Source: Paenibacillus sp. URB8-2 (lineage in GTDB: Bacteria; Bacillota; Bacilli; Paenibacillales; Paenibacillaceae). Taken from it: a DNA stretch of 64,000 bases. The first letter of the stretch is position 1, and every line of letters begins with the position of its first letter. The translations under genes and the position numbers were made by a program. Below are positions 29,400 to 46,315 of the stretch, piece after piece. The stretch covers positions 5,394,001-5,458,000 of the forward strand of contig NZ_AP023239.1 in the NCBI RefSeq assembly GCF_013393385.1, given 5' to 3'. Below the pieces are notes generated by a model. The model did not search any database. It was not told the DNA's origin and saw nothing but the letters and a program-made list of their open reading frames with translations.

Positions 29400-29508
29400 A
29401 AGAAGAAACGCCTGACGGCGTCTTTTTTAAGACGCAGGTACGTTTCTCGTAAAAATATAAGGCCAAAGATAAGCGCGAAGCTTATACTTTCTTATATTTC
29501 AAAAAAAG
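29400..29508 (+). repeat. Structured repeat, copy 1 (subtype A)
   Basis: Begins AAGAAGAAACG and ends in AAAAAAAG. Stems are AGAAACG/CGTTTCT (outer), GCC-TGAC-GGC and GCGTCTT/AAGACGC (inner), AAATATAAG/CTTATATTT and ATAAGC-GCGAA-GCTTAT. Its A-tract is the complement of the T-tract of the hxlAB terminator, so the repeat abuts that terminator. Confidence 0.85.
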
Positions 29509-29544
29509 AAACGCATGCCGCCCCGGATAGGGCCGATGCGTTTC
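29501..29544 (-). terminator. Terminator after hxlAB
   Basis: On the minus strand GAAACGCAT pairs with ATGCGTTTC, followed by TTTTTTT. The T-tract is shared with repeat copy 1. Confidence 0.85.
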
Positions 29545-29607
29545 CCATAGAAATGGAAGAACAAGGCATTTCTTTTTAATGAAAATCAGGCGGCAGTCCG
29601 CGCGCAA

Positions 29608-30165
29608 CTACTCCAGATTGGCATGCTTGCCGAACATTTGAGTTGTCGTTTGCCCCGTTTTATCCATTAGCCGCAATATAACGGCATCATAGAACAGGAG
29701 GAGCGTCTGCTCAAACAGCGAGGCCATCGGCTGAATCGTCGAGCCATTTCCTGCCGCCTGATCTTTCGGCGCTCCGGGGAGCTTCACCGTACCATCGGCC
29801 AGACGTCCAATCATCGACTCCGGGTTGATTGTAAGCACGGCTACGCCCGCGCCCAATGCCTTGGCTTTTTGCGCCATCGCAATCAAGCTCTGCGTCTCAC
29901 CCGAGCCGGAGCCGAGGATAAGCAAATCTCCCTCGGCGATACCGGGAGTCACCGTTTCTCCGACCACATAAGCATCCTTACCCGCATGCATCAGCCGCAT
30001 GGCAAACGCCCGTCCCATTAGACCGGATCTTCCTGCTCCTGCAAGGAATATCCGTTTTGCGCAAAGAACCTGTTCGGCGAGTTCCTCCGCTTCCTGCACG
30101 GGAATCCGGGATACGGACCGCTGCAGCTCATTGATAATTTCCTCTGCGTATTGTACGGTGTTCAT
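29608..30165 (-). CDS. hxlB: 6-phospho-3-hexuloisomerase
   Basis: A 185-residue SIS-domain isomerase that converts hexulose-6-phosphate to fructose-6-phosphate in the ribulose monophosphate pathway. Signature segments are FLAGAGRSGLMGRAFAMRLM, LLILGSGSGETQSLI, LTINPESMIGRLAD and SLFEQTLLLFYDAVILRLMD. ATG 30165 aligns with the start of B. subtilis HxlB; the in-frame TTG at 30189, which would overlap hxlA, has no better ribosome binding site. It is separated from hxlA by only 7 bp. With hxlA it removes formaldehyde by fixing it onto ribulose-5-phosphate. Confidence 0.92.
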   Translation of the reverse strand: MNTVQYAEEIINELQRSVSRIPVQEAEELAEQVLCAKRIFLAGAGRSGLMGRAFAMRLMHAGKDAYVVGETVTPGIAEGDLLILGSGSGETQSLIAMAQKAKALGAGVAVLTINPESMIGRLADGTVKLPGAPKDQAAGNGSTIQPMASLFEQTLLLFYDAVILRLMDKTGQTTTQMFGKHANLE

Positions 30166-30172
30166 CGGCCGC

Positions 30173-30805
30173 TTAAGACTGACTGACAAGACGCTTCATT
30201 TCAGCAGCAACTGCCTTTTTGTCAACTTGTCCGGTAATGCCTCCGCCTACGATGACAAGGTCCGGTTTCGCATCGATCACTTCAGGCAGCGTGTCAAGCT
30301 TAATGCCTCCCGCGATGGCCGTCTTGGCCTGCTTAACCACACTCTTGATCGCCTGCAGATCCTCAAAGGAGTTCTTGCCTGCGGCTTGATGATCGTAGCC
30401 GGAATGAACGCAGATGTAGTCAGCACCGAGAGCGTCCACTTCCGCCGCTCTGCCTTTGATGTCCTTGACGTTAATCAGGTCAACGAGAACTTCCTTCCCG
30501 CTTTTCTTGGCTTCTTCAACCGCGCCTCTGATCGTAGAGTCGTCGGAAACACCGAGTACGGTAATAATATCCGCGCCCGCTTCAGAGGCTTTCATCACTT
30601 CGTAACCGCCCGCGTCCATAATCTTCAGGTCGGCCAATACCGTGAGCTGCGGAAAAGCGTCCTTGATCGCTTTTACAGCGTGCAGCCCTTCATTAATCAC
30701 GATCGGAGTTCCAATTTCAACAATATCTATATAGTCGGCAACTTCCGCCACCACTTCTTTCGCTCCGGGGATGTCTACCAAATCAAGCGCCAATTGCAAT
30801 TTCAT
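30173..30805 (-). CDS. hxlA: 3-hexulose-6-phosphate synthase
   Basis: A 210-residue TIM-barrel enzyme of the OMP decarboxylase superfamily. It condenses formaldehyde with ribulose-5-phosphate. MKLQLALDLVD, DYIDIVEIGTPIVINEGLHA, LADLKIMDAGGYE (catalytic Asp/Lys), DYICVHSGYDHQ and LVIVGGGITGQVDKK (phosphate loop) are diagnostic. GAAGGAG precedes the ATG. It is the first gene of hxlAB. The upstream region has TACAAT with a palindrome across the -35 position, which fits control by an HxlR activator. Confidence 0.93.
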   Translation of the reverse strand: MKLQLALDLVDIPGAKEVVAEVADYIDIVEIGTPIVINEGLHAVKAIKDAFPQLTVLADLKIMDAGGYEVMKASEAGADIITVLGVSDDSTIRGAVEEAKKSGKEVLVDLINVKDIKGRAAEVDALGADYICVHSGYDHQAAGKNSFEDLQAIKSVVKQAKTAIAGGIKLDTLPEVIDAKPDLVIVGGGITGQVDKKAVAAEMKRLVSQS

Positions 30806-30848
30806 AGGTCATAGCTCCTTCGTGGTTATATAATTTATTGCTACGCCT

Positions 30849-30877
30849 ATTGTAGAGAGTACATTTCCTTTTAGGAA
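30849..30877 (-). promoter_or_regulatory. hxlAB promoter with palindrome over the -35 region
   Basis: On the minus strand TACAAT (30854-30849) is preceded, after 17 bp, by a poor -35. TTCCT-TTT-AGGAA (30865-30877) overlaps that position. It is inferred to be an HxlR binding site. Confidence 0.5.
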
Positions 30878-31058
30878 GTAGGCACTTTGCCGTGGTGTAG
30901 TCACCTGGAGGATACTATTGTTCCGTGCCGGGATTTTTCAGGAAAATCATAATCTTTTGGTTACACGGGAAAAAGGGGTGATTTCATCCAAAAGCTGTGC
31001 TATATTGTCCTTTGGAATCAACAGAGAATCCTGACTTTACAAAAAGAAGGTGACCCTC

Positions 31059-32471
31059 ATGGCTGCTGACACCGCTGTGAACAAGACAGAAATTGAAAGC
31101 CCCACTCATGAAAAAATCAGTCTCGTCAAACTGACCTGGCCGATCTTCCTTGAACTGTTTTTGTTCATGCTGATGGGCACGGTAGACACGTTCATGATCA
31201 GTTCCGTTTCGGACGATGCCGTGTCCGGTGTAGGAGCGGCGAACCAGATTATTCAAACCGGCATTCTCGTGCTCAGCGTGGTCGGAAATGGCGCAGCCGT
31301 TGTCGTCTCTCAATATTTGGGCTCCAAAAAGCCGCTCGAAGCGGCAGAGGTTACCGCTAACTCCATTACGCTAAGCACAATTATAGGCGTGATCATGAGC
31401 TTGATTCTGCTGGTGTTTGGGGGAAGCCTGCTGTCGCTGCTGAATGTCCAGGGGGACATTTTGGTACACGGCCGGACGTATATGCATATTGTCGGCAGCT
31501 TTATTTTTTTTCAGGCGCTGATCAATGCCCTTGCTGCCACAGTCCGAACCTATGGCTTCACCGTACAAACGATGCTGCTGTCGCTGCTGATGAACATCCT
31601 GCATGTGGTCGGCAACTATATTTTGATCTTCGGCCATTTCGGCTTTCCGGCGCTCGGCGTGCAAGGCGCGGCCATTTCGACCGTTGTCAGCCGCCTGATC
31701 TGCGTGTTCCTGTTCTTCCTGCTGATGTACCGGATTATGGAGATCCGCGTAAAGTGGTCTTATTACATTTCTCTTAGCAAAAACTATGTGCTGAAAATAC
31801 TGAAAATCGGTATCCCTTCCGCCTTCGAATCGATCATTTATCAGGCCTGCCAACTGGTGTTCACGCTGTATATTACTTATTTGGGCGCGGAGGCAATGGC
31901 AACCCGCCAATATGCGCTTAACATTTCGAACTATATTTATCTGTTCAGCATGGCGGTGGCTATGGGCACTTCCATTATCGTCGGCCATCTGGTAGGCGGG
32001 CGGAATCCGCAGGAGGCGTACAAGCGGGTGTTCCAGAGCGCCAAATGGGCGCTGCTCGCCACGGTAATTATTGACGCGATCGCCATCGTGTTCCGCGTCC
32101 CGCTCTTCGGACTGTTCACGGACAACGAGAACATTATTGTGATGGGCGCCCAGGTCATTCTGCTCAGCTTCTTCCTCGAAACGGGGCGGACCACCAACCT
32201 GATCATCATCAATGCCCTGCGGGCCTCGGGGGACGCCAAATTCCCGGTATACATGGGGCTGATCTCTATGGTATGTATGAGCCTGCCATTGGCCTATGTG
32301 CTTGTCTTCCAGTTTCATCTCGGGCTTGCCGGGGTCTGGCTGGCGAATGCCGCCGACGAATGGACCCGGGCGGTCATTATGTATTTCCGCTGGCGCAGCC
32401 GTGCCTGGGAGAAATACGCCCTGGTCGAGCAGGGCCCTGCCGAGGGCGAAGCAAAGTCCGTGCTGACTTGA
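31059..32471 (+). CDS. MATE-family efflux transporter
   Basis: A 470-residue membrane protein with about 12 helices. SLVKLTWPIFLELFLFMLMG and TVDTFMISSVSDDAVSGVGA open the first MATE repeat. GIPSAFESIIYQACQLVFTL opens the second. Such proteins export cationic drugs or metabolites using Na+ or H+. ATG 31059 is used rather than GTG 31050, because GAAGGTG serves as its ribosome binding site. It is divergent from hxlAB and ends at a strong terminator. Confidence 0.88.
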   Translation: MAADTAVNKTEIESPTHEKISLVKLTWPIFLELFLFMLMGTVDTFMISSVSDDAVSGVGAANQIIQTGILVLSVVGNGAAVVVSQYLGSKKPLEAAEVTANSITLSTIIGVIMSLILLVFGGSLLSLLNVQGDILVHGRTYMHIVGSFIFFQALINALAATVRTYGFTVQTMLLSLLMNILHVVGNYILIFGHFGFPALGVQGAAISTVVSRLICVFLFFLLMYRIMEIRVKWSYYISLSKNYVLKILKIGIPSAFESIIYQACQLVFTLYITYLGAEAMATRQYALNISNYIYLFSMAVAMGTSIIVGHLVGGRNPQEAYKRVFQSAKWALLATVIIDAIAIVFRVPLFGLFTDNENIIVMGAQVILLSFFLETGRTTNLIIINALRASGDAKFPVYMGLISMVCMSLPLAYVLVFQFHLGLAGVWLANAADEWTRAVIMYFRWRSRAWEKYALVEQGPAEGEAKSVLT

Positions 32472-32555
32472 TAACACCCCGATACCCGGCGGTTCCCCGG
32501 CAAGTGCCGCTTCTTCGGTCCTGGCTGAAACAGAAATAAGGCAGACAATCAAACA

Positions 32556-32600
32556 AGCGGGACCGGGAAAGGATAACTCCTTCCCCGGTCCCGCTCTTTT
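32556..32600 (+). terminator. Terminator after MATE gene
   Basis: AGCGGGACCGGG (32556-32567) pairs with CCCGGTCCCGCT (32584-32595), with AAGG/CCTT inside, followed by CTTTTC. Confidence 0.85.
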
Positions 32601-32664
32601 CATTGCCAAAGCTCATGGGAACGGCGCCCCCCACCAGGACAAGACCTGAAGACTCGCCTCCCGG

Positions 32665-32943
32665 TTAATCCAGATAACCGGCCAATCCTTTATCCATCAG
32701 GTAGTCCATCTCCGCATCCAGGATGCGTTCGACCGTCAGCTCGTCCAGCTTAACGTCGCTGCGGCTGAGCACAAAATCAACCAGATCGTCGCTGTCGATG
32801 TCGACCTCTCCCTTGGCGTTGGCCTTGGCGCTGTTAATAAACGCCTGTTCATGCTTCAGAATGAGCGTGATCACTTTAGGGTCGGCTTTCGTTTGGCCTG
32901 CGATGAATGCGATCATTTCCTGTTCGTTTATGGCTTGATTCAT
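32665..32943 (-). CDS. Conserved hypothetical helical protein
   Basis: 92 residues, acidic and almost wholly helical, with no signal peptide or TM segment. VKLDELTVERILDAEMDYLM is a clear amphipathic stretch. No known domain was recognised. GGATG lies near the ATG. Codon usage and the good start support a real gene. It stands alone, leftward, convergent with the MATE gene. Confidence 0.6.
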   Translation of the reverse strand: MNQAINEQEMIAFIAGQTKADPKVITLILKHEQAFINSAKANAKGEVDIDSDDLVDFVLSRSDVKLDELTVERILDAEMDYLMDKGLAGYLD

Positions 32944-33088
32944 ATATGTTCATCCTTCCCGCTTGGACCTGCAAACCCATTGTAGCATAAGCCCCCGGCT
33001 TGCATACAGCGAAGCTTGAAGGAAATCCGGACAGAAGAGGACGAAACGAACATTGTGTTTAAAGGCAGCGGTTCGGTACCGCCGGTTT

Positions 33089-33193
33089 CTATTTCTGCCG
33101 CAGACACAGGATCATCACCGTAAGATACGCGATATTTACCAGCAAAAACAGCATTAGCGTTTGATTAGACATATCCTCTAATAGAATCCACAT
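33089..33193 (-). CDS. 34-residue single-span membrane microprotein
   Basis: Starts MWILLEDMSNQ, followed by the hydrophobic span TLMLFLLVNIAYLTVMILCL and ends LRQK. AAAGGTGAGG stands 2-8 nt before the ATG. A GCGGT-accga-ACCGC hairpin lies right after the stop. A possible -10 box (TATAAT on the minus strand) lies about 50 bp upstream of the start. The short acidic N terminus, one helix and basic C terminus are typical of small membrane regulators. Function unknown. Confidence 0.55.
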   Translation of the reverse strand: MWILLEDMSNQTLMLFLLVNIAYLTVMILCLRQK

Positions 33194-33357
33194 TTCCTCA
33201 CCTTTCGTAAATACCATAATTTTCTTTCTTGTGGAAAATTATACCTCGATAATAAGGAGGGAATAAAGCTTTTTTTGAAAAAATACGCTATACGACCAAG
33301 TCTTCCCATAAAAAAGTCAAGGTCTCTTTTCCAGGAATGGATGGCTTGGGACGTAAA

Positions 33358-33386
33358 TTGCGTCTCTTTTTTCGATTGCTTATAAT
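33358..33386 (+). promoter_or_regulatory. Sigma-A promoter of the AAA-TPR operon
   Basis: TTGCGT (33358-33363), a 17-bp spacer and TATAAT (33381-33386). The transcript should start near 33393, leaving a leader of about 78 nt. Confidence 0.65.
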
Positions 33387-33398
33387 ACTAGATAAGCT

Positions 33399-33459
33399 GC
33401 GTCTTCTGTACTGTCACTCGTCCTAATGGGAGCTTTTCAGTATCAAGAAGACGCTTTTT
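33399..33459 (+). terminator. Leader terminator upstream of the AAA ATPase gene
   Basis: GCGTCTTC (33399-33406) pairs with GAAGACGC (33447-33454), followed by TTTTT. An inner TACTG/CAGTA helix extends the stem. It lies between the promoter and the start codon, in attenuator position. Confidence 0.6.
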
Positions 33460-33470
33460 GGTGAAAGGGC

Positions 33471-34436
33471 GTGAATGCCGTGCCTCATGACGAGCAGGAT
33501 AAGAACCGGATCAGACCGAAGCTCAAGGTCATTTCGTTCAACGGGGACGAGAGCAGCCTTGTCGAAACCGAGCAATCGCAAGTCACCTTTCAGGACGTCG
33601 GCGGGATGGAAGAATTGAAGAAAAAAATCCGCCTGAACTTTATTCTGCCGCTTCAGCAGCCGGAAATGTTCCAGGCCTTCGGGAAGTCGGCCGGAGGCAG
33701 TCTGCTGCTGTACGGCCCTCCGGGCTGCGGCAAGACGTTTCTCGCCCGGGCGATTGCCGGAGAGATCAACGCCAACTTCCTGCATGTCGAGCTGCAGGCT
33801 ATTCTCTCCATGTACATCGGGGAAAGCGAGCATAACCTGCATGATTTCTTTGAAAAAGCGCGCCAGGAAAAGCCCTGCGTCATGTTCATCGACGAGCTCG
33901 ACGCGCTTGGCGGAAGCCGCCACCACATGCATCAGCATCATAACCGCATGCTGGTCAATCAGCTGCTGATCGAACTGGACGGCCTGCAGTCCTTTAACCA
34001 TGAGGTGCTCGTCGTCGGCGCGACGAATACCCCCTGGTACCTCGATTCGGCGCTGCGGCGGCCGGGACGGTTCAACCATCTGTTCTTTGTCCCGCCGCCC
34101 GAACCGGCGGAAAGAGAACTAATCCTCGGCCTGAAGCTTCAAGGCAAGCCGCAGGACGGGCTGCACCTGAAACGCTGGGCCGAGATGACGACGCATTTCT
34201 CGGGCGCCGATCTGGAGCAAATCGTAAGGGATGCGGTGGAGCGGGCAATCGAGCGTTCTCTCGAGAGCGGCAGCATCCAGCCGATCACGGACAAAGATAT
34301 GAAGGCGAGCATCGAGGGACGCAAGCCGACGACGCTGGACTGGTTCTCCACAGCCAAGAACTACGCTACCTTCAGCGATATCAACAAAGATTACGAGCAG
34401 GTGCTTGAATACGTGAAGACCCACCGAATCAAATGA
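33471..34436 (+). CDS. AAA+ ATPase
   Basis: 321 residues with one AAA domain. QVTFQDVGGMEELKKKIRLN starts the domain, Walker A is LLLYGPPGCGKTFLARAIAG, Walker B is CVMFIDELDALGG, and sensor/arginine finger residues are in VVGATNTPWYLDSALRRPGR. It resembles classic (FtsH/Cdc48-like) AAA modules without a protease domain or a TM segment. The start is GTG 33471. It is followed 10 bp later by a TPR membrane protein, so the pair probably works together as a remodelling ATPase with a membrane adaptor. The role is unknown. Confidence 0.85.
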   Translation: MNAVPHDEQDKNRIRPKLKVISFNGDESSLVETEQSQVTFQDVGGMEELKKKIRLNFILPLQQPEMFQAFGKSAGGSLLLYGPPGCGKTFLARAIAGEINANFLHVELQAILSMYIGESEHNLHDFFEKARQEKPCVMFIDELDALGGSRHHMHQHHNRMLVNQLLIELDGLQSFNHEVLVVGATNTPWYLDSALRRPGRFNHLFFVPPPEPAERELILGLKLQGKPQDGLHLKRWAEMTTHFSGADLEQIVRDAVERAIERSLESGSIQPITDKDMKASIEGRKPTTLDWFSTAKNYATFSDINKDYEQVLEYVKTHRIK

Positions 34437-34446
34437 ACAGGCGGTG

Positions 34447-35334
34447 ATGCCCGTGAGCTTGCATGGCCCTGATGCCTTCCACTATGAGCGGGCGTTTCAG
34501 CTGATGAACTGGCGGCGCTTTGCGGAGGCGATTGAGGAAACCGAGAAGTGGATACTGGAAGATCCGGAGAATGCCGATGCGTACGGAATGCTGGCGCAAA
34601 TTCATATGAAAGCCGGCAGTTATGACCATGCGCTGCATTGGTCGGCCGAGGCGCTAAGATGCGATCCGGAGAACGCGCTGGCCTGGTTCGTGCGGGCCGT
34701 GTCGCTGTACTCGCAGGGCAATGAGGCGCTGTTTCTGGAAGCGGCGGCGGAAGGGCAGCGGATTGATCCGCTGGAAAGCTATTATCCTTTTCTCAAATTC
34801 AATATTTATCATAAAAAAGGGGATTTCCAAGCGGCGCGGGAGGAAATGGACCGGGCGCTCCGGTTTGCGCCGGACCGCTCCCTGTTCCTCGCGGCGGACA
34901 GCTATCTGCGGGCCAACTCGCGGGATTTCGAAGGCTCGCTCTCTTCGGAGAGCATGGCGCTGTTTCACGATCCCGAGGACGACCAGACCTATCTGTACCT
35001 TGCCTGGGCGGCGGACAGACGGGGCGATTACGGCAAAGAGATCGAGTTCATGAAGAACGCGATCCGGATCGACCCCACGGACGAGCAAATCCGCAACGAG
35101 TATTTAAACAGCCTGCAAAAGAAATACTGGTTCTACCGCGTGCTGCTCCTGCCGTTTATGGTGAAGAAGCGGTTCAGCAAGTGGCAGTTTTTTCTCGTCT
35201 GGGTTGTGCTCTGGCTCGTATTCCGCCCCTTCGTGCTGCTGTTTCTGCTCCTGTACGTACTGGCGTACTGGTTGAGCAAGCTGCTCGTCAGAGTTCAGGT
35301 GTTCGGCTGGAGGTCGCTGTTCCGCAAAATATAA
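34447..35334 (+). CDS. TPR-repeat membrane protein
   Basis: About 295 residues. Tetratricopeptide repeats fill residues 10-220 (for example FAEAIEETEKWILEDPENAD, YDHALHWSAEALRCDPENAL and YGKEIEFMKNAIRIDPTDEQ). Two closely spaced hydrophobic segments follow near the C terminus (WQFFLVWVVLWLVFRPFVLL and LFLLLYVLAYWL), with basic residues between and after them. The TPR part is therefore likely cytosolic and membrane-anchored. GTG 34444, ATG 34447 and GTG 34453 are all possible starts behind AGGCGGTG. It is cotranscribed with the AAA ATPase. Confidence 0.75.
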   Translation: MPVSLHGPDAFHYERAFQLMNWRRFAEAIEETEKWILEDPENADAYGMLAQIHMKAGSYDHALHWSAEALRCDPENALAWFVRAVSLYSQGNEALFLEAAAEGQRIDPLESYYPFLKFNIYHKKGDFQAAREEMDRALRFAPDRSLFLAADSYLRANSRDFEGSLSSESMALFHDPEDDQTYLYLAWAADRRGDYGKEIEFMKNAIRIDPTDEQIRNEYLNSLQKKYWFYRVLLLPFMVKKRFSKWQFFLVWVVLWLVFRPFVLLFLLLYVLAYWLSKLLVRVQVFGWRSLFRKI

Positions 35335-35353
35335 ATAATGATGAACAATACCT

Positions 35354-35461
35354 AAGAAGAAACGGCTACGCCGTCCTCTGGAAGAGGAAGGCATCCGTTT
35401 CTCGTAAAAATATCAGGTTAAGGATAGCGCGAAGCTTATACTTTCTGATATTTCGAAAAAG
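35354..35461 (+). repeat. Structured repeat, copy 2 (subtype B)
   Basis: Same ends and folding as the other copies, with AGAAACGG/CCGTTTCT, ACGGC-TAC-GCCGT, CCTCT-GGA-AGAGG and AAATATCAG/CTGATATTT. One base is missing in the inner GATAGC/GCTTAT stem. It abuts the terminator between the TPR gene and rpmE2. Confidence 0.85.
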
Positions 35462-35505
35462 GACCCATTGCAGAAGGCCGAAGCCCGCTGCGATTGGTCC
35501 TTTTT
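35456..35505. terminator. Bidirectional terminator between TPR gene and rpmE2
   Basis: AAAAAGGACC (35456-35465) pairs with GGTCCTTTTT (35496-35505), with a TTGCAG/CTGCGA helix inside. The left A-tract is shared with repeat copy 2. Confidence 0.85.
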
Positions 35506-35524
35506 GGCGTTACGATACGTTGCG

Positions 35525-35773
35525 TTATTTCTTGTAGTTCAGACGCTGATTGAAGCGGTCGATACGGCCGCCCGTGTCGATATTCTTCTGTCTGCCCGTA
35601 TAGAATGGATGGGAAGCCGAGCTGGAATCGACCCGGATCACCGGATACGTATTGCCGTCCTCCCACTGCATCGTCTCTCCCGAAGACTTGGTGGAAGCGC
35701 TCAGGAATTTAAAATCCGCACTCGCATCATAGAAAATGACCGGCTGGTATTTCGGATGAATACCTTCTCTCAT
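35525..35773 (-). CDS. rpmE2: Ribosomal protein L31 type B
   Basis: 82 residues. [40 protein letters not shown] and [13 protein letters not shown] are diagnostic of the zinc-free (type B, YtiA-like) L31, which lacks the CxxC zinc ligands of the main form. In bacilli the type B form replaces zinc-containing L31 when zinc is scarce, usually under Zur control. No convincing Zur box was recognised upstream; instead there is a TTACCC-7-GGGTAA inverted repeat. GAGGGA precedes the ATG. Confidence 0.93.
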
Positions 35774-35816
35774 CGTTAATCCCTCTTTCTGAATAAAATA
35801 GACATCTTGTATTAAC

Positions 35817-35835
35817 TTACCCTACTTTTGGGTAA
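35817..35835. promoter_or_regulatory. Inverted repeat upstream of rpmE2
   Basis: TTACCC-TACTTTT-GGGTAA, about 45 bp upstream of the rpmE2 start. It is a candidate operator. Confidence 0.4.
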
Positions 35836-35892
35836 AGCTTTCAACAAAATGACCACTTCAGTGAAAAATTCCGGTAAAACACTGAGGCGGGC

Positions 35893-36102
35893 TTATGATG
35901 GAACGGTATCCGTCAACGAAAGCTCCATATACAGCAGTTCATGTGTGGGGACAAGACCGGCCCGCTCCAATGAAGCTGTAAAGAAGGCGCCTGTGGCCGG
36001 AATATGAACGGCTCTTACTCCTACGCCTTCCGGGACACCGGAGAGCAGCTGGGATAACAGCGTATCTGCGATCGCCTCCGCGTCCAAGACGCCGTCAATC
36101 AC
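35893..36102 (-). CDS. Small hypothetical protein with GNAT-like C-terminal motif
   Basis: 69 residues from a GTG start behind AAAGGAG. VRAVHIPATGAFFTASLERA followed by GLVPTHELLYMELSL looks like the last strand-helix-strand of a GNAT acetyltransferase, but the acetyl-CoA motif is absent. Reading on upstream in the same frame (QLGKGALWGVIDGVLDAEA) leads directly to the stop of the potassium channel gene. It may be a truncated acetyltransferase remnant or a genuine tail gene of the envelope operon. Confidence 0.4.
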   Translation of the reverse strand: MIDGVLDAEAIADTLLSQLLSGVPEGVGVRAVHIPATGAFFTASLERAGLVPTHELLYMELSLTDTVPS

Positions 36103-36144
36103 GCCCCATAATGCTCCTTTCCCAAGCTGGATTTCCTTTTCCGG

Positions 36145-37176: not shown

Positions 37177-37250
37177 CCCCCCGGATGTCCTGCAAAGGCC
37201 CGCAAAGCCGCCCGCCGCTTCGAGGACAGCCCTGCGGGCCTTCGAGATAG

Positions 37251-37652
37251 TTAAATGATCAGACTGCTGACCGCAAACGCGGTTCCGACAAAGACCATGC
37301 ACAGCAGCGTCCCCACCGCGACATTGCCCTGTTTCAGATGATCTGAGATTTTAAAGCCGATCGTGACCAGCTCGAAAATCCAGTAAGACGCCACCAGACA
37401 GACATAGCCGACCGCGAACCAGATTGCCATAAACCAGATCGACGAGTTCGTATAGGCCGCCACTCCGAGAATAATCGCCGTCGCCAGGAATTTCCCGCCC
37501 AGCGCCAGACCTACGGCGACATTGCCGTTCTTCAGCTCCTCCATATCTTTGAACGGAGTCATCCAGCTGAAGATCAGCATGCCCAGCAATTGAAGCACGA
37601 TAATGAAAATTACACTAACCAGAATATTGATAACGACCGTCAATTCGCCCAC
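37251..37652 (-). CDS. DUF350 (YjfL-type) membrane protein
   Basis: 133 residues with four hydrophobic helices in two repeats, each carrying a conserved xxxGNxAVG motif (ELKNGNVAVGLALGGKF and HLKQGNVAVGTLLCMVF). This is the DUF350 family signature. In E. coli the YjfL member is encoded with the glutathionylspermidine-synthase-like YjfC, and the same pairing occurs here. It overlaps the lipoprotein gene by 13 bp. The function is unknown; a membrane-stress role is inferred. Confidence 0.82.
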   Translation of the reverse strand: MGELTVVINILVSVIFIIVLQLLGMLIFSWMTPFKDMEELKNGNVAVGLALGGKFLATAIILGVAAYTNSSIWFMAIWFAVGYVCLVASYWIFELVTIGFKISDHLKQGNVAVGTLLCMVFVGTAFAVSSLII

Positions 37653-38320: not shown

Positions 38321-38321
38321 T

Positions 38322-39518: not shown

Positions 39519-40234
39519 CCGCCGAACCCGCTGCTCTTGCTTGAACTGGACCGCGAGCTTGAGCCGAGGCTCGATTTGGAACTGGATTTCGAGCTGGACG
39601 ACGAACTGGACGAGCTCAGGCCGCTCGACTTTCCGCCGATCCCGCCAGCCGTGGAAGACGTCGACCGTCTCGTAATGGTGCCCGTCGTGGAGGTCGAGGT
39701 CTTCGGCTTCACCACGGAGCCGGTCACCGGCTTGTTCTGAAACTTCGTGTTGTCATAAGTACGCGGTTTATAGACCGTCCGTGTGCCTCCATAATAGGTT
39801 GGACGGTGGTCATACCATCTGCTCGGCGAATAGCTGGAGCCGCCGCCAAACAGCATGTGGTACAGCAGCAGATCATCCCAGCCAAAACCGGAGTTATACC
39901 CGCCGTAATTGTTAATGATCGTTGTCCCGTTCGATGTAGCGACGCCCGGAGCCTGGGTCGGCTGGGCCGTTTCTTTCCCCGTCTCCTCCGGATACGGGAT
40001 GTTCCAGTCCACATTTTTGTCGAAATAGGCTTTAACCTCTTCCGTGGACCAGGACACCAGCGTCGGCTCATCCGCAGATGAGCTGCCGCTTGCGACCGAG
40101 GCGCCCGGAACAAACAGCGCATTGGCCAGCAGGGCGATACCCAGCGAGGTCGACAGCACTCTAACCGGTTTGCCGCTTAAGTCAAACCCTTTTTCCCCTA
40201 GCGATTCATTTCCTGTTTCTTTTTCTCTACCCAA
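39515..40234 (-). CDS. Membrane-anchored Ser-rich protein
   Basis: 239 residues read from a TTG with AAGGAGG 8 nt upstream. One hydrophobic segment (LSTSLGIALLANALFVPGAS) probably anchors or exports it. The middle region is Gly/Tyr/Asn-rich, and the last 60 residues are a low-complexity Ser/Lys tail ending KSSGFGG. E. coli YgiB/YjfM, encoded next to the YgiC/YjfC ATP-grasp proteins, likewise carry low-complexity Ser/Gly tails. This may be the substrate of the adjacent ATP-grasp ligase, which is inference only. Confidence 0.6.
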   Translation of the reverse strand: MGREKETGNESLGEKGFDLSGKPVRVLSTSLGIALLANALFVPGASVASGSSSADEPTLVSWSTEEVKAYFDKNVDWNIPYPEETGKETAQPTQAPGVATSNGTTIINNYGGYNSGFGWDDLLLYHMLFGGGSSYSPSRWYDHRPTYYGGTRTVYKPRTYDNTKFQNKPVTGSVVKPKTSTSTTGTITRRSTSSTAGGIGGKSSGLSSSSSSSSSKSSSKSSLGSSSRSSSSKSSGFGG

Positions 40235-40265
40235 AGCGGGTGCCTCCTTAATAATAATCTTCTGC

Positions 40266-40481
40266 CTATTCGGTGCGCATCGGAACGAGCAGCAGTTCAA
40301 GCTTGCCCTCATCCACATTCAGCCTGCCCTCCACCGTTTCGAACTCGCGGCCGCCGACTACCAAATAGTTGACATGCTCCAGCGCGGCGACCATATTGGC
40401 GCTCCATACGCGCTCTTCGATCTTGTTCAGTTCGCCATCCGGCATTTTTTCATATAAAATAACGCTCATCCCATTGTCCAA
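40266..40481 (-). CDS. Small conserved hypothetical protein, first gene of the envelope operon
   Basis: 71 residues (DNGMSVILYEKMPDGELNKI...), soluble, alpha/beta, ending LNVDEGKLELLLVPMRTE. No domain was recognised. TTG 40481 is preferred, with GGAAGGGAAGGA upstream. The longer in-frame TTG at 40508 would leave no leader behind the ECF-type promoter at 40547-40521. Together with the next five genes it forms a leftward operon with overlaps or gaps of 31-74 bp at most. Confidence 0.55.
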   Translation of the reverse strand: MDNGMSVILYEKMPDGELNKIEERVWSANMVAALEHVNYLVVGGREFETVEGRLNVDEGKLELLLVPMRTE

Positions 40482-40520
40482 GAGAATTTCCTTCCCTTCC
40501 TGATTCAATTGTACCTTTAA

Positions 40521-40547
40521 TACGGGAAATGCCGGTCTAATGTTTCA
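40521..40547 (-). promoter_or_regulatory. ECF (sigma-W-like) promoter of the envelope operon
   Basis: On the minus strand TGAAAC (40547-40542), a 17-bp spacer and CGTA (40524-40521). This matches the consensus TGAAAC-n16/17-CGTA of Bacillus sigma-W-type ECF sigma factors. Confidence 0.65.
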
Positions 40548-40659
40548 TTTGGAAACTGCGGGGGAATGTCAAACCTTCCCATAACAGAATAAAGCGTCCT
40601 GCCCTTCAGAGGCAATCTTTTTTCTTTGGCAGAAACGGCAGAATCTGCGCTTCATTTTT

Positions 40660-40689
40660 TTGACAAAAGCACCGCCACCGGAATAAAAT
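40660..40689 (+). promoter_or_regulatory. Sigma-A promoter of the TetR-SMR-SDR operon
   Basis: TTGACA (40660-40665), an 18-bp spacer and TAAAAT (40684-40689). The AT-rich palindromic stretch AAAATATT...AATATTTT (about 40685-40708) directly follows and is a candidate TetR operator. Confidence 0.65.
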
Positions 40690-40742
40690 ATTGAAAACAA
40701 AATATTTTCCGCATTTTCCGGCAAGGGAAGGGAGGCCTATTT

Positions 40743-41297
40743 TTGAAGCAAAGAATACTCGCGGAGGCCCGGCAGGAGATTTACAAGTCCGGTTTCCGTT
40801 TTACAATGGCGGATATGGCAAGACGCTGCGGGCTTAGTACGAAAACGATTTACGAGTGTTATTCTTCCAAAGAAGATTTAATTCTGGATATGGTTCAGCA
40901 GGCTATTGATGAACTCACGGAGCGGGAACAGTCGATCGTGAATGACCCAAAGCTTGGAACGATGGACAAACTGAGAGCTCTGCTCGTGCTTCTTCCACGG
41001 GATTTCCAGTTTTTTGATATCAAGCGTCTGCACGAACTGCAACGTTATTACACGAATGTGTGGAACATTATGGATTCCTTTTTGACGGAACAGTGGGACG
41101 GTGTGACCCAAATGCTTGCGGCGGCTCAGGCGGAAGGACTGCTGGAGAAGTTCAATACGGCGCTGTTCATTCAGCTGTATATCGGGGGACTGTACCGGTT
41201 AATGGAGCAAGCCTCCACGGGTGCGGCCCAGATGACTCTCCGGCAAGCACTGGACGAAATGGTTGACATTATGTTAAACGGGATCAGAAAGAGGTGA
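40743..41297 (+). CDS. TetR/AcrR-family regulator
   Basis: 184 residues. The N-terminal helix-turn-helix FTMADMARRCGLSTKTIYEC, followed by YSSKEDLILDMV, is typical; the C-terminal ligand domain is family-specific. The TTG start has GGGAGG 8 nt upstream. It is the first gene of an operon with an SMR efflux protein (4 bp away) and an NAD(P)-binding protein, so it most likely represses its own efflux operon and responds to a toxic compound. Confidence 0.85.
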   Translation: MKQRILAEARQEIYKSGFRFTMADMARRCGLSTKTIYECYSSKEDLILDMVQQAIDELTEREQSIVNDPKLGTMDKLRALLVLLPRDFQFFDIKRLHELQRYYTNVWNIMDSFLTEQWDGVTQMLAAAQAEGLLEKFNTALFIQLYIGGLYRLMEQASTGAAQMTLRQALDEMVDIMLNGIRKR

Positions 41298-41301
41298 TAC
41301 C

Positions 41302-41688
41302 ATGCATTGGTTGCTGCTGCTCGCCGCAATAGCCGCAGAGGTGGCTGGGACAACATTCATGAAGCTGTCTATGGGTTTTACGAAACTTGGTCCTTCCATT
41401 CTGCTCGCAGTCTGTTATCTGCTTAGCCTGACCATGCTGAATCTGGCGCTGAAAAGCGTCTCCATGAGTGTGGCCTACGCCGTTTGGTCCGGTGCGGGAA
41501 CCGCCTTAGTGGCGGGTATCGGCTGGGTGCTGTTCGGTGAACGGATGTCCTTATTGAAGATCGTCTGCATTCTGCTCATCATAGCGGGTGTAGCGGGGCT
41601 GAACCTGGTGGAGGAAAGCCATGGAGAGCCGAAGAATTCAGGCAGTCCGCAGCTTTCAACTCGCTCATCCGAGGGGACGGAGGTTTGA
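41302..41688 (+). CDS. SMR-family multidrug efflux protein
   Basis: 128 residues with four TM helices. WLLLLAAIAAEVAGTTFMKL contains the essential membrane-embedded Glu of EmrE-type transporters, and VSMSVAYAVWSGAGTALVAG is the third-helix signature. A hydrophilic tail of about 25 residues is unusual for the family. SMR proteins act as dimers exchanging H+ for cationic drugs or guanidinium. GAGGTG precedes the ATG. Confidence 0.9.
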   Translation: MHWLLLLAAIAAEVAGTTFMKLSMGFTKLGPSILLAVCYLLSLTMLNLALKSVSMSVAYAVWSGAGTALVAGIGWVLFGERMSLLKIVCILLIIAGVAGLNLVEESHGEPKNSGSPQLSTRSSEGTEV

Positions 41689-41740
41689 GTCATTAATGGG
41701 GGAGCTTTGACGATGACGATTTTATTTTTGTAGGAGGGAC

Positions 41741-42382
41741 ATGCTTTTGGAAACATTGAATCGGATAGCCATCATAGGTGGAACAGGCAGAGCGGGCCGT
41801 TACCTTGCGCAAAAAGCGTTGGAAAGCGGCTATCACGTTCGTATGCTTGCCAGAAATCCGGACAAAGCATTCATTAAAGATGACAGATTACAGGTGATTG
41901 CCGGAGATGCCCGAAACATACAAGACCTTCGTTCTCTGCTGGAAGGCTGCCATGCCGTTATTAATACCTTCGGGCAACCCGCAAAAGATACACCGCTGTA
42001 CAGCAGCGTAACCCATACTGTTCTCACGGTCATGCAGGAGTATGGAATCACAAGGTATATTGGCGTTGCAGGCGGGTCGCTGAATGTTCAGGGCGACAGG
42101 AAGTCATTTCTAAACCGAATAGCGTCCACCCTGTTCTACATTCTGTTCGGCAAGATGATCGCAGACAGAAAAAAAGAACTGGATCTGCTTATGAAAAGCG
42201 ATATCCAATGGACCCTCGTGCGTCTGCCATTTGTAGTTGAGGGTTTGGAAACGGGCCATATCAAGGAAAATTTAAGGGATATCCCGGGAAGAAACATTAC
42301 GAATTCCGACATAGCCAAATTCCTCGTCAGTCAGGTTAATGAAATGAAATATGTAAAAAGAACGCCTTGTATCTCAAATTGA
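41741..42382 (+). CDS. NAD(P)-binding protein (NmrA/SDR-like)
   Basis: 213 residues. The Rossmann signature is RIAIIGGTGRAGRYLAQKAL (GxxGxxG), with VRMLARNPDKAF and VIAGDARNIQDLRSLLEGCH. This is an atypical SDR5-type (YwnB/YesF-like) fold without a clear YxxxK catalytic pair. GGAGG precedes ATG 41741 by only 3 nt; TTG 41747 at about 9 nt spacing is a possible alternative. It is the third gene of the TetR-SMR operon. Confidence 0.8.
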   Translation: MLLETLNRIAIIGGTGRAGRYLAQKALESGYHVRMLARNPDKAFIKDDRLQVIAGDARNIQDLRSLLEGCHAVINTFGQPAKDTPLYSSVTHTVLTVMQEYGITRYIGVAGGSLNVQGDRKSFLNRIASTLFYILFGKMIADRKKELDLLMKSDIQWTLVRLPFVVEGLETGHIKENLRDIPGRNITNSDIAKFLVSQVNEMKYVKRTPCISN

Positions 42383-42532
42383 CGCAAAAGGAACCCAGCC
42401 TTGAATAGACGAGGTTCCCTGATTGGCTATTACGTTTCAACCGACGCCGACGACCCGGTCAAAGAACCGGTGCTCGGGTGGGCGGGGCAAACATTTTGGT
42501 TATTTGAGCAATGCGGAACATCCATATCCGGT

Positions 42533-43672
42533 TTATTTGGGCGACAAGCTGTACGTCACCGTTCTGCCTTTGTCGTCCGCAAGCGAACGGTACGTCAGCG
42601 TCAGCCGGTTCCCGTCGCGCTTGGTCAGAATAAGCATTCTTGCCAGCACGTAGGGATCCTGGCCGTCGGACTTCTCCCAGTCCTTCCAATCCTCCGGCGT
42701 TGCCACTTCCTTGTTCAGATTAACGGTGGCATCCGTGCCGGTATGGATTAAATACAAGTGGGACGTATCGACGAAGCGGATGATCAGCACGTCGGGAGCG
42801 GCATATTTAACGGTGAACGCGCCGCTCTGTCCGGTAAGCGCCTCTATGTCGTACAGCTTGCCGAGACTGCCGTCGCCGTTAATATACTGCACGCTGTCGT
42901 CGCCACTCATATACAGCTGCGTGGACGCGACCTTCGGATTTTCCGAATAAGCCGGAACCATGAGATGAAAGTCCATCTGCTTGACGATTTTGCCGTCCCG
43001 GATCAGCGCCTGGTATACATTGCTGAAATTAGTGAACATGGCATAGTGGTTGTCGCTTAATACAAGCAGATGCGTGCCCCCAGCCACTGTCTTAATCTCC
43101 AAGTTATGCATATACGGCGATACAATCAGAGGCAGCTTGCCCAGAAGCGCCGGCTTTCCCGAGGCGGAGCGGGAGGCGTAGACTTCGCCTGTATGCTGTG
43201 ATACCCAATACGTCATGTCCGGAACGGCTGCCGTGGTAAACCGGGTCTCATCGCTGATGCTCAGACTGCCGCTGCCCGGTTCACGCGCAATTTTGCCCCC
43301 AAGCACGCCTGTTCCGCTTACAAGCGGGATTTGGACAGTGCCTGCCGCAATGCGGACCGGCTTCGCGAGCTGAAATACGGTTCCGTTCACCGTAGCGGCT
43401 TTGGAGCCGGCCGTTACCGCAATCTGCCGTCCGGGACGCGTCAGAACGGCCGTTTTGGATGCCTGATTCCATACGACCGAATATCCCATATTGATCGCCA
43501 AGGTTTTGAGGGGCACCCATGTTGTTCCCGCCGAAACGATTGCCTTGCTTGCAAGATCCAAATTCTTATAATTCAGCAAAATCGGGGAAACCTCTGCTCC
43601 AAACGCCGTACTTGCGCCCCAGCCGAGCACCGCCGCCAGAACAACGGCTGCCAGTTTGCCAGTTCTCATCAT
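42533..43672 (-). CDS. Secreted copper-amine-oxidase-N-like (stalk domain) protein
   Basis: 379 residues. The signal peptide (MRTGKLAAVVLAAVLGWGAS, cut near AFGAE) is followed by a stalk domain (about residues 30-140: ILLNYKNLDLASKAIVSAGT, TWVPLKTLAINMGYSVVWN). A beta-rich region that looks like a propeller or WD-type fold comes next (ETRFTTAAVPDMTYWVSQHT onward). GGAGG precedes the ATG. Stalk domains are abundant in Paenibacillus surface proteins; the function is unknown. It is monocistronic. Confidence 0.75.
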   Translation of the reverse strand: MMRTGKLAAVVLAAVLGWGASTAFGAEVSPILLNYKNLDLASKAIVSAGTTWVPLKTLAINMGYSVVWNQASKTAVLTRPGRQIAVTAGSKAATVNGTVFQLAKPVRIAAGTVQIPLVSGTGVLGGKIAREPGSGSLSISDETRFTTAAVPDMTYWVSQHTGEVYASRSASGKPALLGKLPLIVSPYMHNLEIKTVAGGTHLLVLSDNHYAMFTNFSNVYQALIRDGKIVKQMDFHLMVPAYSENPKVASTQLYMSGDDSVQYINGDGSLGKLYDIEALTGQSGAFTVKYAAPDVLIIRFVDTSHLYLIHTGTDATVNLNKEVATPEDWKDWEKSDGQDPYVLARMLILTKRDGNRLTLTYRSLADDKGRTVTYSLSPK

Positions 43673-43786
43673 TACAAGCCTCCTCTTCGTGTCTTTTCCT
43701 TAATAGTTGGACGAAATTACCTGGAAAAAGTTTCATAATCCGGGGAATCAGCAGCAAATGGATGTTTATACGATTTGTATAGTACG

Positions 43787-43827
43787 ACAAAAAAACGGAT
43801 ACCGTCCTTAAGGGGACGATATCCGTT
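43787..43827 (-). terminator. Terminator after pbuX
   Basis: On the minus strand AACGGATA-TCGTCC pairs with GGACGG-TATCCGTT (arms 43794-43801 and 43820-43827), followed by TTTTTTT. Confidence 0.85.
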
Positions 43828-43871
43828 GATTTTAATCGGGCCGCTCAGCTTCTCCATGTCTTTGCGGATAA

Positions 43872-45185
43872 TCAGGCCTGCTGCTGCGCTTCCTGCGCGG
43901 CGGCAGGAGCCGGCATTTCCCGGGCATCCTTTGTCTTCGACAGGAAGATATTCGGGACAATCGCGGTCAGCGAGCCGGACACGATGCCGTTCTGCAGCAG
44001 CATTCTGGCGAACTCCGGAAGCTGGTCGAACATTTGCGGAATCGTGGCCGAACCGAGACCGACGGCGATGCTGCAAGCGGCGATCAGCAGATTGCCATCC
44101 TTGCGCAGGTCGACCTCGGAGAGAATCGATATGCCGGAAGCCGCCACCGAACCGAACATCACAATCATGGCTCCGCCGAGCACGGCGTTCGGAACGACCG
44201 TCGTCAGCGCGGCCAATTTGGGCAACAGGCCGAGAACGACCATAATGCCGCCGGCCGCGAAGATCACATTGCGCGTCTTCACGCGGGTAAGCGAAATCAG
44301 GCCGACATTTTGCGAGAAGGCGGTATATGGAAAAGCGTTAAACAGGCCGCCGAGCATAATCGCCAGACCTTCGGATCGGAGGCCGTTAACGACCTGCTTC
44401 GGCTCCACCTTCTGCTCCGTCACCCGGCCAACGGCAAAGTATACGCCCGTCGATTCCACCATGCTGACGATATTGACGATAATCATCGTAAAGATCGCGG
44501 TAAGACTGAATTCCGGACGGCCGAAGTAGAACGGCTGGGCGACGCTGACCCAGGAGGCACTGCCGACGGAAGTAAAATGGACCATGCCAAGAAAATAAGC
44601 AACCGCCGTTCCGGCCACAAGGCCCACCAGCACGGAAACGGAACGCAGAAATCCGGTGGCGAAGCGGTTCACAAGCAGTATGACCACAAGCGTAATCAGC
44701 GCCAGCAGCAGATTGCGAGGCTGTCCGAAATCGGCGCTGCCTTCGCCGCCTGCGGCGTTCTTCATCGCTACCGGAATCAGCGACAGACCGATAATCGTGA
44801 CGACCGAGCCGGTTACGATGGTGGGAAAGAACTTAAGCAGCCGGCCGTACAGCGGCGCGGCCAGCACGACGAACAGGCCGGAGAGAATAATCGCCCCATA
44901 GGCCGTTGCCAGATTGGAGCTGGAGGCGACGGCGATAATCGGACCGACCGCCGTAAACGTGCAGCCGAGGATGACCGGCAGTCGGCTGCCGAAATATTTG
45001 GTGCCCATAACCTGGAGCAGCGTCGCCAGCCCGCAGGTGAACAGGTCGGCGGCAATCAGATAGGCCATCTGCTCGCCGGTAAGTTTCAGCGCGCCGCCGA
45101 CAATCAGCGGAACGACGACCGCGCCCGCATACATTGCCAGCACATGCTGGAGTCCGAGTGTAAATACTTTGCGCTTGCTTAACAT
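43872..45185 (-). CDS. pbuX: Xanthine permease (NCS2 family)
   Basis: A 437-residue membrane protein with about 14 helices. LGLQHVLAMYAGAVVVPLIV opens the family. The conserved NCS2 region near helix 10 is FAAGGIMVVLGLLPKLAALT, with VVPNAVLGGAMIVMFGSVAA, and the signature Glu lies in SMVESTGVYFAVGR. It imports xanthine with protons. It overlaps xpt by 7 bp and shares its guanine riboswitch control. Confidence 0.9.
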   Translation of the reverse strand: MLSKRKVFTLGLQHVLAMYAGAVVVPLIVGGALKLTGEQMAYLIAADLFTCGLATLLQVMGTKYFGSRLPVILGCTFTAVGPIIAVASSSNLATAYGAIILSGLFVVLAAPLYGRLLKFFPTIVTGSVVTIIGLSLIPVAMKNAAGGEGSADFGQPRNLLLALITLVVILLVNRFATGFLRSVSVLVGLVAGTAVAYFLGMVHFTSVGSASWVSVAQPFYFGRPEFSLTAIFTMIIVNIVSMVESTGVYFAVGRVTEQKVEPKQVVNGLRSEGLAIMLGGLFNAFPYTAFSQNVGLISLTRVKTRNVIFAAGGIMVVLGLLPKLAALTTVVPNAVLGGAMIVMFGSVAASGISILSEVDLRKDGNLLIAACSIAVGLGSATIPQMFDQLPEFARMLLQNGIVSGSLTAIVPNIFLSKTKDAREMPAPAAAQEAQQQA

Positions 45186-45784
45186 GATGCACTCTCCTTG
45201 ATGCTTTCTTCACTGTCTATAAAATGTACTTCTCCCGGCGCCATCGCCGAAATCCGGGCCAGCGAATGAACCTCCACGCCCATGTCCTCCAGCAGCCCGC
45301 GGCCTTCCTGAAAGCTCTTCTCAATGACGCAGCCGACGCCCAGCAGCTCCGCTCCCGCTTCGCGCACGATATCGACCAGGCCCACCAGGGCCGCGCCCGT
45401 GGCGAGAAAATCGTCGACGATAAGCACCTTGTCGCCGGGGCCGAGGTATTTTTGCGAAATGCTGATTTGATACGATTCCTGACGCGTAAACGAATGGACC
45501 GGAGCCGAATACACCTGCTCGGAGAGGGTTATGACCTTCTTCTTCTTGGCATATACAAACGGAACGCCCAGTGCGATTGACGCCGCCATAGCAAACTGGA
45601 TGCCGCTCGCCTCGATCGTCAGCACCTTCGTAATCGGTCTGCCGCCGAATATCCGGCCGAATTCCTTCCCGATTTCGAGCGCCAGGCCGGTATCGACCTG
45701 ATGATTCAGAAACGAGTCCACCTTCAGCACCGTATCGGACAAGATCTGTCCTTCCCGTCTAATGCGTTCTTCCAACACTTTCAT
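45179..45784 (-). CDS. xpt: Xanthine phosphoribosyltransferase
   Basis: A 201-residue purine salvage enzyme that makes XMP from xanthine and PRPP. VLIVDDFLATGAALVGLVDI is the PRPP-binding motif, and VLTIEASGIQFAMAASIALG and YAKKKKVITLSEQVYSAPVH are typical of Xpt. ATG 45784 has GGTGGAAG upstream and matches the family start; in-frame upstream codons are leader. It is the first gene of xpt-pbuX and lies downstream of a guanine riboswitch, its terminator and one structured repeat. Confidence 0.93.
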   Translation of the reverse strand: MKVLEERIRREGQILSDTVLKVDSFLNHQVDTGLALEIGKEFGRIFGGRPITKVLTIEASGIQFAMAASIALGVPFVYAKKKKVITLSEQVYSAPVHSFTRQESYQISISQKYLGPGDKVLIVDDFLATGAALVGLVDIVREAGAELLGVGCVIEKSFQEGRGLLEDMGVEVHSLARISAMAPGEVHFIDSEESIKESASC

Positions 45785-45891
45785 CTTACTTCCACCGCTC
45801 CTTCTTCCTTCCGGAAACATAAAATAGCCCCGCAAAGCGCAGCTTGGGCTCGAAGCCGCTCAGAACATTTGCAAGGACCCTAAAAACCATC

Positions 45892-45998
45892 AAGAAGAAA
45901 CGCCTGACGGCGTCTTTCAAGACGCAAGTGCGTTTCTCGTAGAAATACAAGGTCTTTTATAAGCGTGAAACTTATAAATTCTTGTATTTTAAAAAAGG
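45892..45998 (+). repeat. Structured repeat, copy 3 (subtype A)
   Basis: Stems are AGAAACGC/GCGTTTCT, GCC-TGAC-GGC, GCGTCTT/AAGACGC, AAATACAAG/CTTGTATTT and TATAAG/CTTATA. Base changes relative to copies 1, 2 and 4 keep the pairing. It lies between the riboswitch terminator and xpt, inside the xpt leader. Confidence 0.85.
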
Positions 45999-46035
45999 AC
46001 AGATTCCTTGAGCGTTTCTCTCAAGTGAATCTGTC
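45991..46035 (-). terminator. Expression-platform terminator of the xpt riboswitch
   Basis: On the minus strand GACAGATTC-a-CTTGAG pairs with CTCAAG-g-AATCTGTC, followed by CTTTTTTT. It stands about 75 nt after the aptamer. Confidence 0.75.
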
Positions 46036-46110
46036 ACTCCAGGTTATTATCCCTTATGGTGCAACACGTCAGGCGTGTCCGCGCCGCCTCTAACCCCGGA
46101 CGCGCTGTTC

Positions 46111-46181
46111 ACTCATAGTCGGACAATTGCGATGGTCATCCGGTAGAAACTTATGGGCCGTATCCCCATGATTATATGAGT
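46111..46181 (-). ncRNA. Purine (guanine) riboswitch of xpt-pbuX
   Basis: On the minus strand P1 is ACTCATA/TATGAGT, followed by the conserved TATAATC junction, P2 (GTTTCTACC boundary), and TGTCCGACTATGAGT. The specificity base in CGACTAT is C, which pairs with guanine or hypoxanthine (adenine riboswitches have T). Ligand binding should favour the downstream terminator and shut off xpt-pbuX. Confidence 0.9.
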
Positions 46182-46206
46182 TAAATCATTCTTTTTTTGT
46201 AATATT

Positions 46207-46315
46207 AAGAAGAAACGGCTTCGCCGTCCTCTGGAAGAGGAAGGCATCCGTTTCTCGTAAAAATATCAGGTTAAGGATAAGCGCGAAGCTTATACTTTCT
46301 GATATTTAAAAAAGG
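46207..46315 (+). repeat. Structured repeat, copy 4 (subtype B)
   Basis: Stems are AGAAACGG/CCGTTTCT, ACGGC-TTC-GCCGT, CCTCT-GGA-AGAGG, AAATATCAG/CTGATATTT and ATAAGC-GCGAA-GCTTAT. It lies between the probable xpt promoter and the riboswitch aptamer. The flanking T-tract (minus strand) is preceded only by a weak GCCCT/AGGGC stem. Confidence 0.85.

What the first reader, a model, noticed from the sequence alone, without database searches (positions are those of the whole stretch)
29400..46315. A family of ~108-bp repeats with compensatory base changes (four copies)
Copies at 29400-29508, 35354-35461, 45892-45998 and 46207-46315, all in the same orientation, share ends (AAGAAGAAACG...AAAAAAG) and a two-domain fold. 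Helices covary: AAATATAAG/CTTATATTT (copy 1), AAATATCAG/CTGATATTT (copies 2, 4), AAATACAAG/CTTGTATTT (copy 3); the outer helix AGAAACGC/GCGTTTCT (copy 3) against AGAAACGG/CCGTTTCT (copies 2, 4). One inner hairpin is wholly exchanged between subtypes (GCGTCTT/AAGACGC versus CCTCT/AGAGG). Such pair-preserving change means structure is selected, or is copied as structure. I recognise no named family.
Basis: seen in the sequence. Interest (0 to 1): 0.82.

Follow-up and report, generated by a model that had tools for sequence, protein, structure and literature searches.

The report
Mobile DNA hairpins parked behind terminators
A 102-base element made of two hairpins sits in more than eighty copies in this Paenibacillus chromosome, mostly just behind predicted transcription terminators and facing one replication direction; it is likely moved as single-stranded DNA by an enzyme that has not been identified.

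Summary
The four copies are real and belong to a mobile, gene-less family of about 102 bp (81 copies counted here, a capped sample). Two adjacent hairpins covary in 90 distinct sequences. The 'AAAAAAG' end is not part of the element: on the other strand it is the T-tract of the terminator-like hairpin behind which the copy inserted. Filled and empty sites against P. rhizophilus show insertion without target duplication. On the T-tract strand: TTTTNTTR | AAATATMAG...CGTTTCTTCTTR |, so the right end resembles the target. 76 of 81 copies face with replication, against 69% of strong predicted terminators; several, not all, related genomes agree. I read this as replication-coupled, hairpin-guided single-strand DNA transposition in trans, working like IS200/IS605, REPIN or group IIC elements. 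Membership in these fails: G016 has no Y1 transposase, RAYT or reverse-transcriptase match, yet four copies 99-100% alike at four places. The mobiliser is unknown. All same-genus genomes carry the element (12 of 12, own included), 21 of 24, none of 26 from sister genera. An IS110-family IS lands inside the element at one position, 6 of 6 copies found.

The parts
29399..29499 (+). copy 1 of the element (T-tract strand is -)
29500..29546 (-). terminator-like hairpin plus T-tract behind which copy 1 lies
   Evidence: sequence
35353..35453 (+). copy 2 of the element
35454..35505 (-). terminator-like hairpin plus T-tract behind which copy 2 lies, downstream of a type B L31 ribosomal protein gene (35525-35773, -)
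   Evidence: sequence
45891..45989 (+). copy 3 of the element, lying between the hairpin downstream of the purine aptamer and the xpt gene (45179-45835, -)
45990..46035 (-). hairpin and T-tract downstream of the purine aptamer, the target of copy 3
46096..46199 (-). purine riboswitch aptamer (RF00167)
46206..46307 (+). copy 4 of the element; P. rhizophilus lacks it here (empty site)
46308..46366 (-). weak hairpin and T-tract behind which copy 4 lies
   Evidence: sequence
21460..21463 (.). empty site: P. rhizophilus (L031) carries a copy here, this window does not; flanks partly diverged

Best explanation
It is a 102-bp mobile element without a gene of its own that is likely excised and inserted as folded single-stranded DNA during replication, by a trans-acting enzyme that would recognise its two hairpins. 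Shown: it inserts without target duplication 3' of TTTTNTTR, mostly right behind a stable hairpin; its right end (hairpin plus CTTCTTR) resembles such a target, and copies also insert behind other copies; in this genome orientation follows replication. Inferred: the hairpins are terminators; the T-tract strand, the lagging-strand template, is the folded and cut strand; each junction is cut after TTR; the mobiliser is a host-encoded enzyme outside the Y1_Tnp, RAYT and RVT_1 families.
For: Filled/empty pairs without duplication: sites 2, 4, 6 well aligned and sites 1, 5 with diverged flanks, of 7 comparisons. Target logo over 153 copies: -3 T 0.95, -5 T 0.88, -1 A or G 0.79; element ends CTT then A or G 0.98. 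Stable hairpin at the T-tract in 110 of 139 non-tandem copies (several genomes), against 285 of 960 other T-tracts of G000. Orientation with replication 76 of 81, binomial p 5e-8 against the 69% of strong predicted terminators; 40 of 47 in a catalogue of 1.264 Mb. With ori taken at base 1 and ter at half, listed copies follow in G022 23 of 23, G103 15 of 15, G072 10 of 11, G001 8 of 9, G074 3 of 3 (lists; count). Covariation. [quoted passage not shown]
Against: No enzyme was found. Guide sequences like those of IS608 cannot be assigned: the left hairpin starts directly at the cut. 29 of 139 copies lack a strong hairpin at the target. Site 3 is not a T-tract; site 4 differs by one base at the junction, and at site 2 a one-base overlap cannot be excluded. 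The orientation rule is weak in G007 (20 of 31) and fails in G097 (9 of 22) under the same assumption of ori and ter; the G097 list looks like two blocks, as if its contig did not start at ori, but that was not tested. The strand bias is also known for group IIC introns. Strong background terminators already lean 69% the same way. Near-identical copies could in part come from gene conversion.
Confidence: 0.6

Rival explanations
1. It is a PATE, a deletion derivative of an IS200/IS605 transposon, moved in trans by the Y1 transposase of resident IS200 copies.
For: G000 holds 12 Y1_Tnp matches, 7 of them one IS200-like IS of about 749 bp; all 7 sit behind hairpins with a T-rich tail, by eye, and one empty site shows no duplication. 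The IS and the copy-4 subtype are both expanded in G000. In L080 an element copy abuts the right end of the IS.
Against: The IS200 ends do not resemble the element ends, and none of the loci L190-L228, from Y1 and TnpB matches, carries an element. Element-rich G001, G011, G012, G016 and G018 have no Y1_Tnp match; G021 has Y1 and no element match.
Confidence: 0.15
2. It is a retroelement: its RNA is put into the lagging-strand template behind terminators by a group IIC-type reverse transcriptase.
For: Group II introns of the bacterial C type insert right behind rho-independent terminators and prefer the lagging template (PMC8919778, passages). G012 has 18 RVT_1 matches, G000 3.
Against: No RVT_1 match in element-bearing G001, G007, G016, G030, G037. 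No intron family is matched in Rfam.
Confidence: 0.12
3. It is a functional RNA (sRNA or cis-regulator) spread by selection.
For: Covariation; one copy sits in the xpt leader.
Against: Position is set by hairpin and T-tract of the other strand, sites differ between close species, copies form head-to-tail arrays.
Confidence: 0.03
4. An IS110-family recombinase moves it, the two looped hairpins acting like a bridge RNA.
For: IS110 matches in 9 of 10 element-bearing genomes tested; one IS110 type inserts into the element.
Against: None in G011, which has a 98% identical pair of copies; the IS110 copies use the element as target, not as donor.
Confidence: 0.03

Closest known systems
PATEs of IS200/IS605 (Haloquadratum; PMC3119063, passages)
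   Same: no terminal inverted repeats, palindromes near the ends, no target duplication, too short for a transposase
   Different: hairpins match no IS200/IS605 ends looked at here; targets are terminator-like hairpins; recent copies in genomes with no Y1_Tnp match
REPINs/REPs with RAYT (PMC3116915, PMC6006769, passages)
   Same: high-copy hairpin units with compensatory changes; target of an IS110-family IS
   Different: two different hairpins head to tail instead of inverted REPs; no RAYT over cut-off in 11 genomes
Group IIC introns (PMC8919778, passages)
   Same: insertion right behind intrinsic terminators, lagging-template bias
   Different: 102 bp, no Rfam ribozyme match, no ORF; RVT_1 absent from several element-bearing genomes
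MITEs (definition as in PMC3119063, passages)
   Same: short, no gene, high copy
   Different: no inverted ends, no target duplication

Membership tests
PATE / IS200-IS605 derivative | no target duplication, no terminal inverted repeats, near-terminal palindromes, no room for a transposase | tested here: met
PATE / IS200-IS605 derivative | palindromes and ends shared with an IS200/IS605 transposon | tested here: not met
   not shared by the IS200 copies of G000, no element in loci L190-L228; not every Y1 locus of the relatives was fetched (one search gave at most 30 loci)
PATE / IS200-IS605 derivative | Y1 transposase available in the genome | tested here: not met
   Y1_Tnp in 15 of 40 genomes (own included); absent from element-rich G001, G011, G012, G016, G018; present in G000
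REPIN | two REPs in inverted orientation | tested here: not met
   the two hairpins differ in sequence
REPIN | cognate RAYT in the genome | tested here: not met
   0 of 11 over cut-off; the 12 weak matches in G000, G007 and G013 coincide with Y1_Tnp matches
Group IIC intron | intron-encoded reverse transcriptase in the genome | tested here: not met
   none in G001, G007, G016, G030, G037; present in G000 and others
Group IIC intron | insertion behind terminators on the lagging template | tested here: met
MITE | terminal inverted repeats and target duplication | tested here: not met
HUH single-strand transposition (mechanism) | circular single-stranded intermediate, phosphotyrosine joint | not testable with these tools
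   needs experiment
known RNA family | Rfam match over gathering score | tested here: not met
   whole window; copy 4 at low threshold

The most novel reading that the evidence does not exclude
Paenibacillus harbours a host-encoded, so far unrecognised single-strand DNA transposase, neither Y1/RAYT nor reverse transcriptase, that moves these hairpin pairs into the lagging-strand template behind intrinsic terminators: a REPIN-like system with a new kind of engine.
Probability: 0.3. Interest if true: 0.85.

Novelty: new variant of a known kind. Interest (0 to 1): 0.62.

Why it matters
Insertion behind terminators on the lagging template is known for group IIC introns, which bring a reverse transcriptase; hairpin-guided single-strand transposition is known for IS200/IS605, which bring a Y1 enzyme. 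Here a genus-wide family shows the same signature, with near-identical copies in a genome where neither enzyme is matched. It points either to a new mobiliser or to a host function that handles hairpin plus T-tail single-stranded DNA. The close pair of this genome and P. rhizophilus makes it directly testable. The element also enters 3' regions and a riboswitch leader, and is a landing site for an IS110.

Tried and rejected
Mobiliser hunt: Y1_Tnp in own and in 40 genomes, TnpB in own (43), RVT_1 in 40 (50), IS110 in 10 (79), RAYT model NF047646 in 11 (90): of the four families tested beyond the own genome, none is present in every element-bearing genome tested. Clustering ORFs next to elements in the loci at hand gave families shared by at most 6 genomes; the largest looks like an ABC transporter by eye, and none of the 30 listed looked like a transposase. 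The densest array (100-120 kb) has no transposase-like ORF by eye. Plasmids and phages (one blastn query each) and viral contigs (two exact patterns): no match. My own terminator scanner is too strict (14 of 47 copies); a folding test replaced it for the copies, but the 69% background still comes from that scanner. First attempt at synteny with G013:C1:1-400000 gave almost nothing; named loci of P. rhizophilus served instead. Paper searches that found nothing on this family: (open-licence papers only, search listings). Papers seen in passages only: PMC9208149, PMC3119063, PMC7290912, PMC8919778, PMC3116915, PMC6006769, PMC1525189.

These searches scored only 40 candidates each, so 81 is a sample biased to copies close to copies 3 and 4. 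One search kept full-length copies with enough flank only (153). Tandem copies (14) were left out of the hairpin test. The strand counts of other genomes use only the rows that searches listed (G022 23 of 29 matches, G103 15 of 41, G072 11 of 19, G001 9 of 36, G007 31 of 84, G097 22 of 41, G074 3 of 38); G016, whose ori I do not know, was not counted.

Full report
What is there. Four copies on + at 29400, 35354, 45892 and 46207. The genome (G000, 5.58 Mb, one contig) holds many more: two searches that score 40 candidates each gave 47 and 45 rows, the exact hairpin-2 pattern occurs 100 times with control 0, and 1.264 Mb hold 47 full or nearly full copies. Subtypes exist; 40 rows are 96-100% identical to copy 4, the trace of a recent burst.

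Distribution. Named genomes with the core pattern are all Paenibacillus (47 stretches). Of 40 genomes, own included, 26 match by DNA: own, 21 of 24 of the same genus (not G017, G019, G021) and 4 of 15 others. With a covariance model and stricter filters, 17 of 99 genomes of the order match at E 1e-6: 12 of 12 of the same genus (own included), 0 of 26 from other genera of the family, 5 of 61 elsewhere. No plasmid, phage or viral contig matched.

Structure. Model R1 gave an alignment of 96 copies. Per: helix 1 is almost invariant, helix 2 covaries in 8 of 8 pairs, helix 3 in 2 of 9, helix 4 in 5 of 6 (only 65% of cells paired). The alignment was fitted to the model, which favours the structure, and relatedness is not removed; the slid control falls to 39-53%. 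RNAalifold by itself on this gappy alignment predicts only 13 pairs, all in hairpin 1. A.C exceeds G.T on the + strand, which suggests that the opposite strand folds; mutational bias could also do this.

Insertion. Comparison with P. rhizophilus (91-98% alike in most aligned stretches) gives filled and empty sites. Site 6 is the clearest: one copy in P. rhizophilus, two in G000; the new copy inserted right behind the old one's CTTCTTG and brought its own CTTCTTA. Copy 4 of the window is absent from P. rhizophilus; copy 3 has a counterpart there (L060). The logo over 153 copies is TTTTNTTR before the cut, CTTCTTR at the element's right end. 110 of 139 targets have a stable hairpin at the T-tract, against 285 of 960 T-tract controls, which include true terminators. 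Copy 3 lies behind the T-tract of the hairpin that follows the purine aptamer and in front of xpt.

Strand. Base 1 of the contig starts an ORF that I recognise as DnaA (by eye); GC skew is +0.066 in 0-0.8 Mb and -0.076 in 4.0-4.4 Mb. In 76 of 81 copies the T-tract strand runs with the fork; 129 of 186 strong predicted terminators and 63-70% of ORFs do. The boundary used (2.752 Mb) was set where the copies change strand, close to half the contig. Listed copies of other genomes, with ori at base 1 and ter at half: G022 23 of 23, G103 15 of 15, G072 10 of 11, G001 8 of 9, G074 3 of 3, but G007 20 of 31 and G097 9 of 22. The G097 list looks like two blocks of opposite strand, which a different ori would explain; this was not tested. 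G007 speaks against a strict rule.

Enzyme. Y1_Tnp: 12 matches in G000, 15 of 40 genomes overall, none in G001, G011, G012, G016, G018. RVT_1: 26 of 40, none in G001, G007, G016. RAYT model: none over cut-off in 11 genomes. G016 nevertheless carries four copies at four places that are 99-100% alike (97 or 98 of 98 bases); G018 and G011 have pairs at 99% and 98%. G012 copies look older by eye, and the fetched copies of G001 reach only 85%. A very recent loss of the enzyme, or gene conversion, is not excluded. PF01797 aligns only partly to RAYTs (PMC6006769, passages), which is why the RAYT model was run too.

Nested IS. In G000 an IS110-family IS of about 1.55 kb lies in six element copies at the same base of hairpin 2, all six copies found in the DNA at hand (97.4-99.8% alike to the one at 376029). 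A second insert breaks two copies of another subtype at nearly the same point. REPs are known targets of IS110 members (PMC1525189, passages).

Verdict. A mobile, genus-wide hairpin element that homes to terminator-like targets; it works like IS200, REPIN and IIC elements in its target and strand rules, is a member of none of them by the tests done, and its mobiliser is unknown. No paper on this family turned up, which search open-licence papers only. On rechecking, the IS200 count was corrected to 7 and the weak genomes G007 and G097 were added; I left the odds as they were, because the main case rests on G000 and the empty sites.

Noticed in passing
G000:C1:375935, 1121054, 1581115, 4630909, 4868548, 5068014: An IS110-family IS is inserted at the same position inside hairpin 2 of six element copies (all six copies of that IS found in the DNA at hand).
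   Followed up: yes
L328 (G000:C1:2089626) and L329 (G000:C1:3279349): A second insert breaks two copies of another subtype at nearly the same point; IS110 matches lie about 1 kb away.
   Followed up: partly
L079-L085: An IS200-like IS of about 749 bp (7 near-identical copies) also sits behind hairpins with a T-rich tail, without target duplication at the one empty site compared; in L080 an element copy abuts its right end.
   Followed up: partly
window 45891-45989: The element separates the purine riboswitch and the hairpin behind it from xpt; the effect on xpt control is unknown.
   Followed up: partly
G000:C1:350328, 415377, 1103634, 1190680, 1208712: Copies whose hairpin 2 is a perfect palindrome, as if one arm had been copied from the other, at several places.
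   Followed up: no
L064, L003, L034, L041, L094, L095: Variants whose hairpin 1 carries an extra insert of small hairpins (about 35 nt).
   Followed up: no
L305-L311 (G016): A G016 subtype has changed ends (CAAGCATAAACG, linker AAGCGAG) while most of its targets remain T-rich; linker and tail may co-vary.
   Followed up: no
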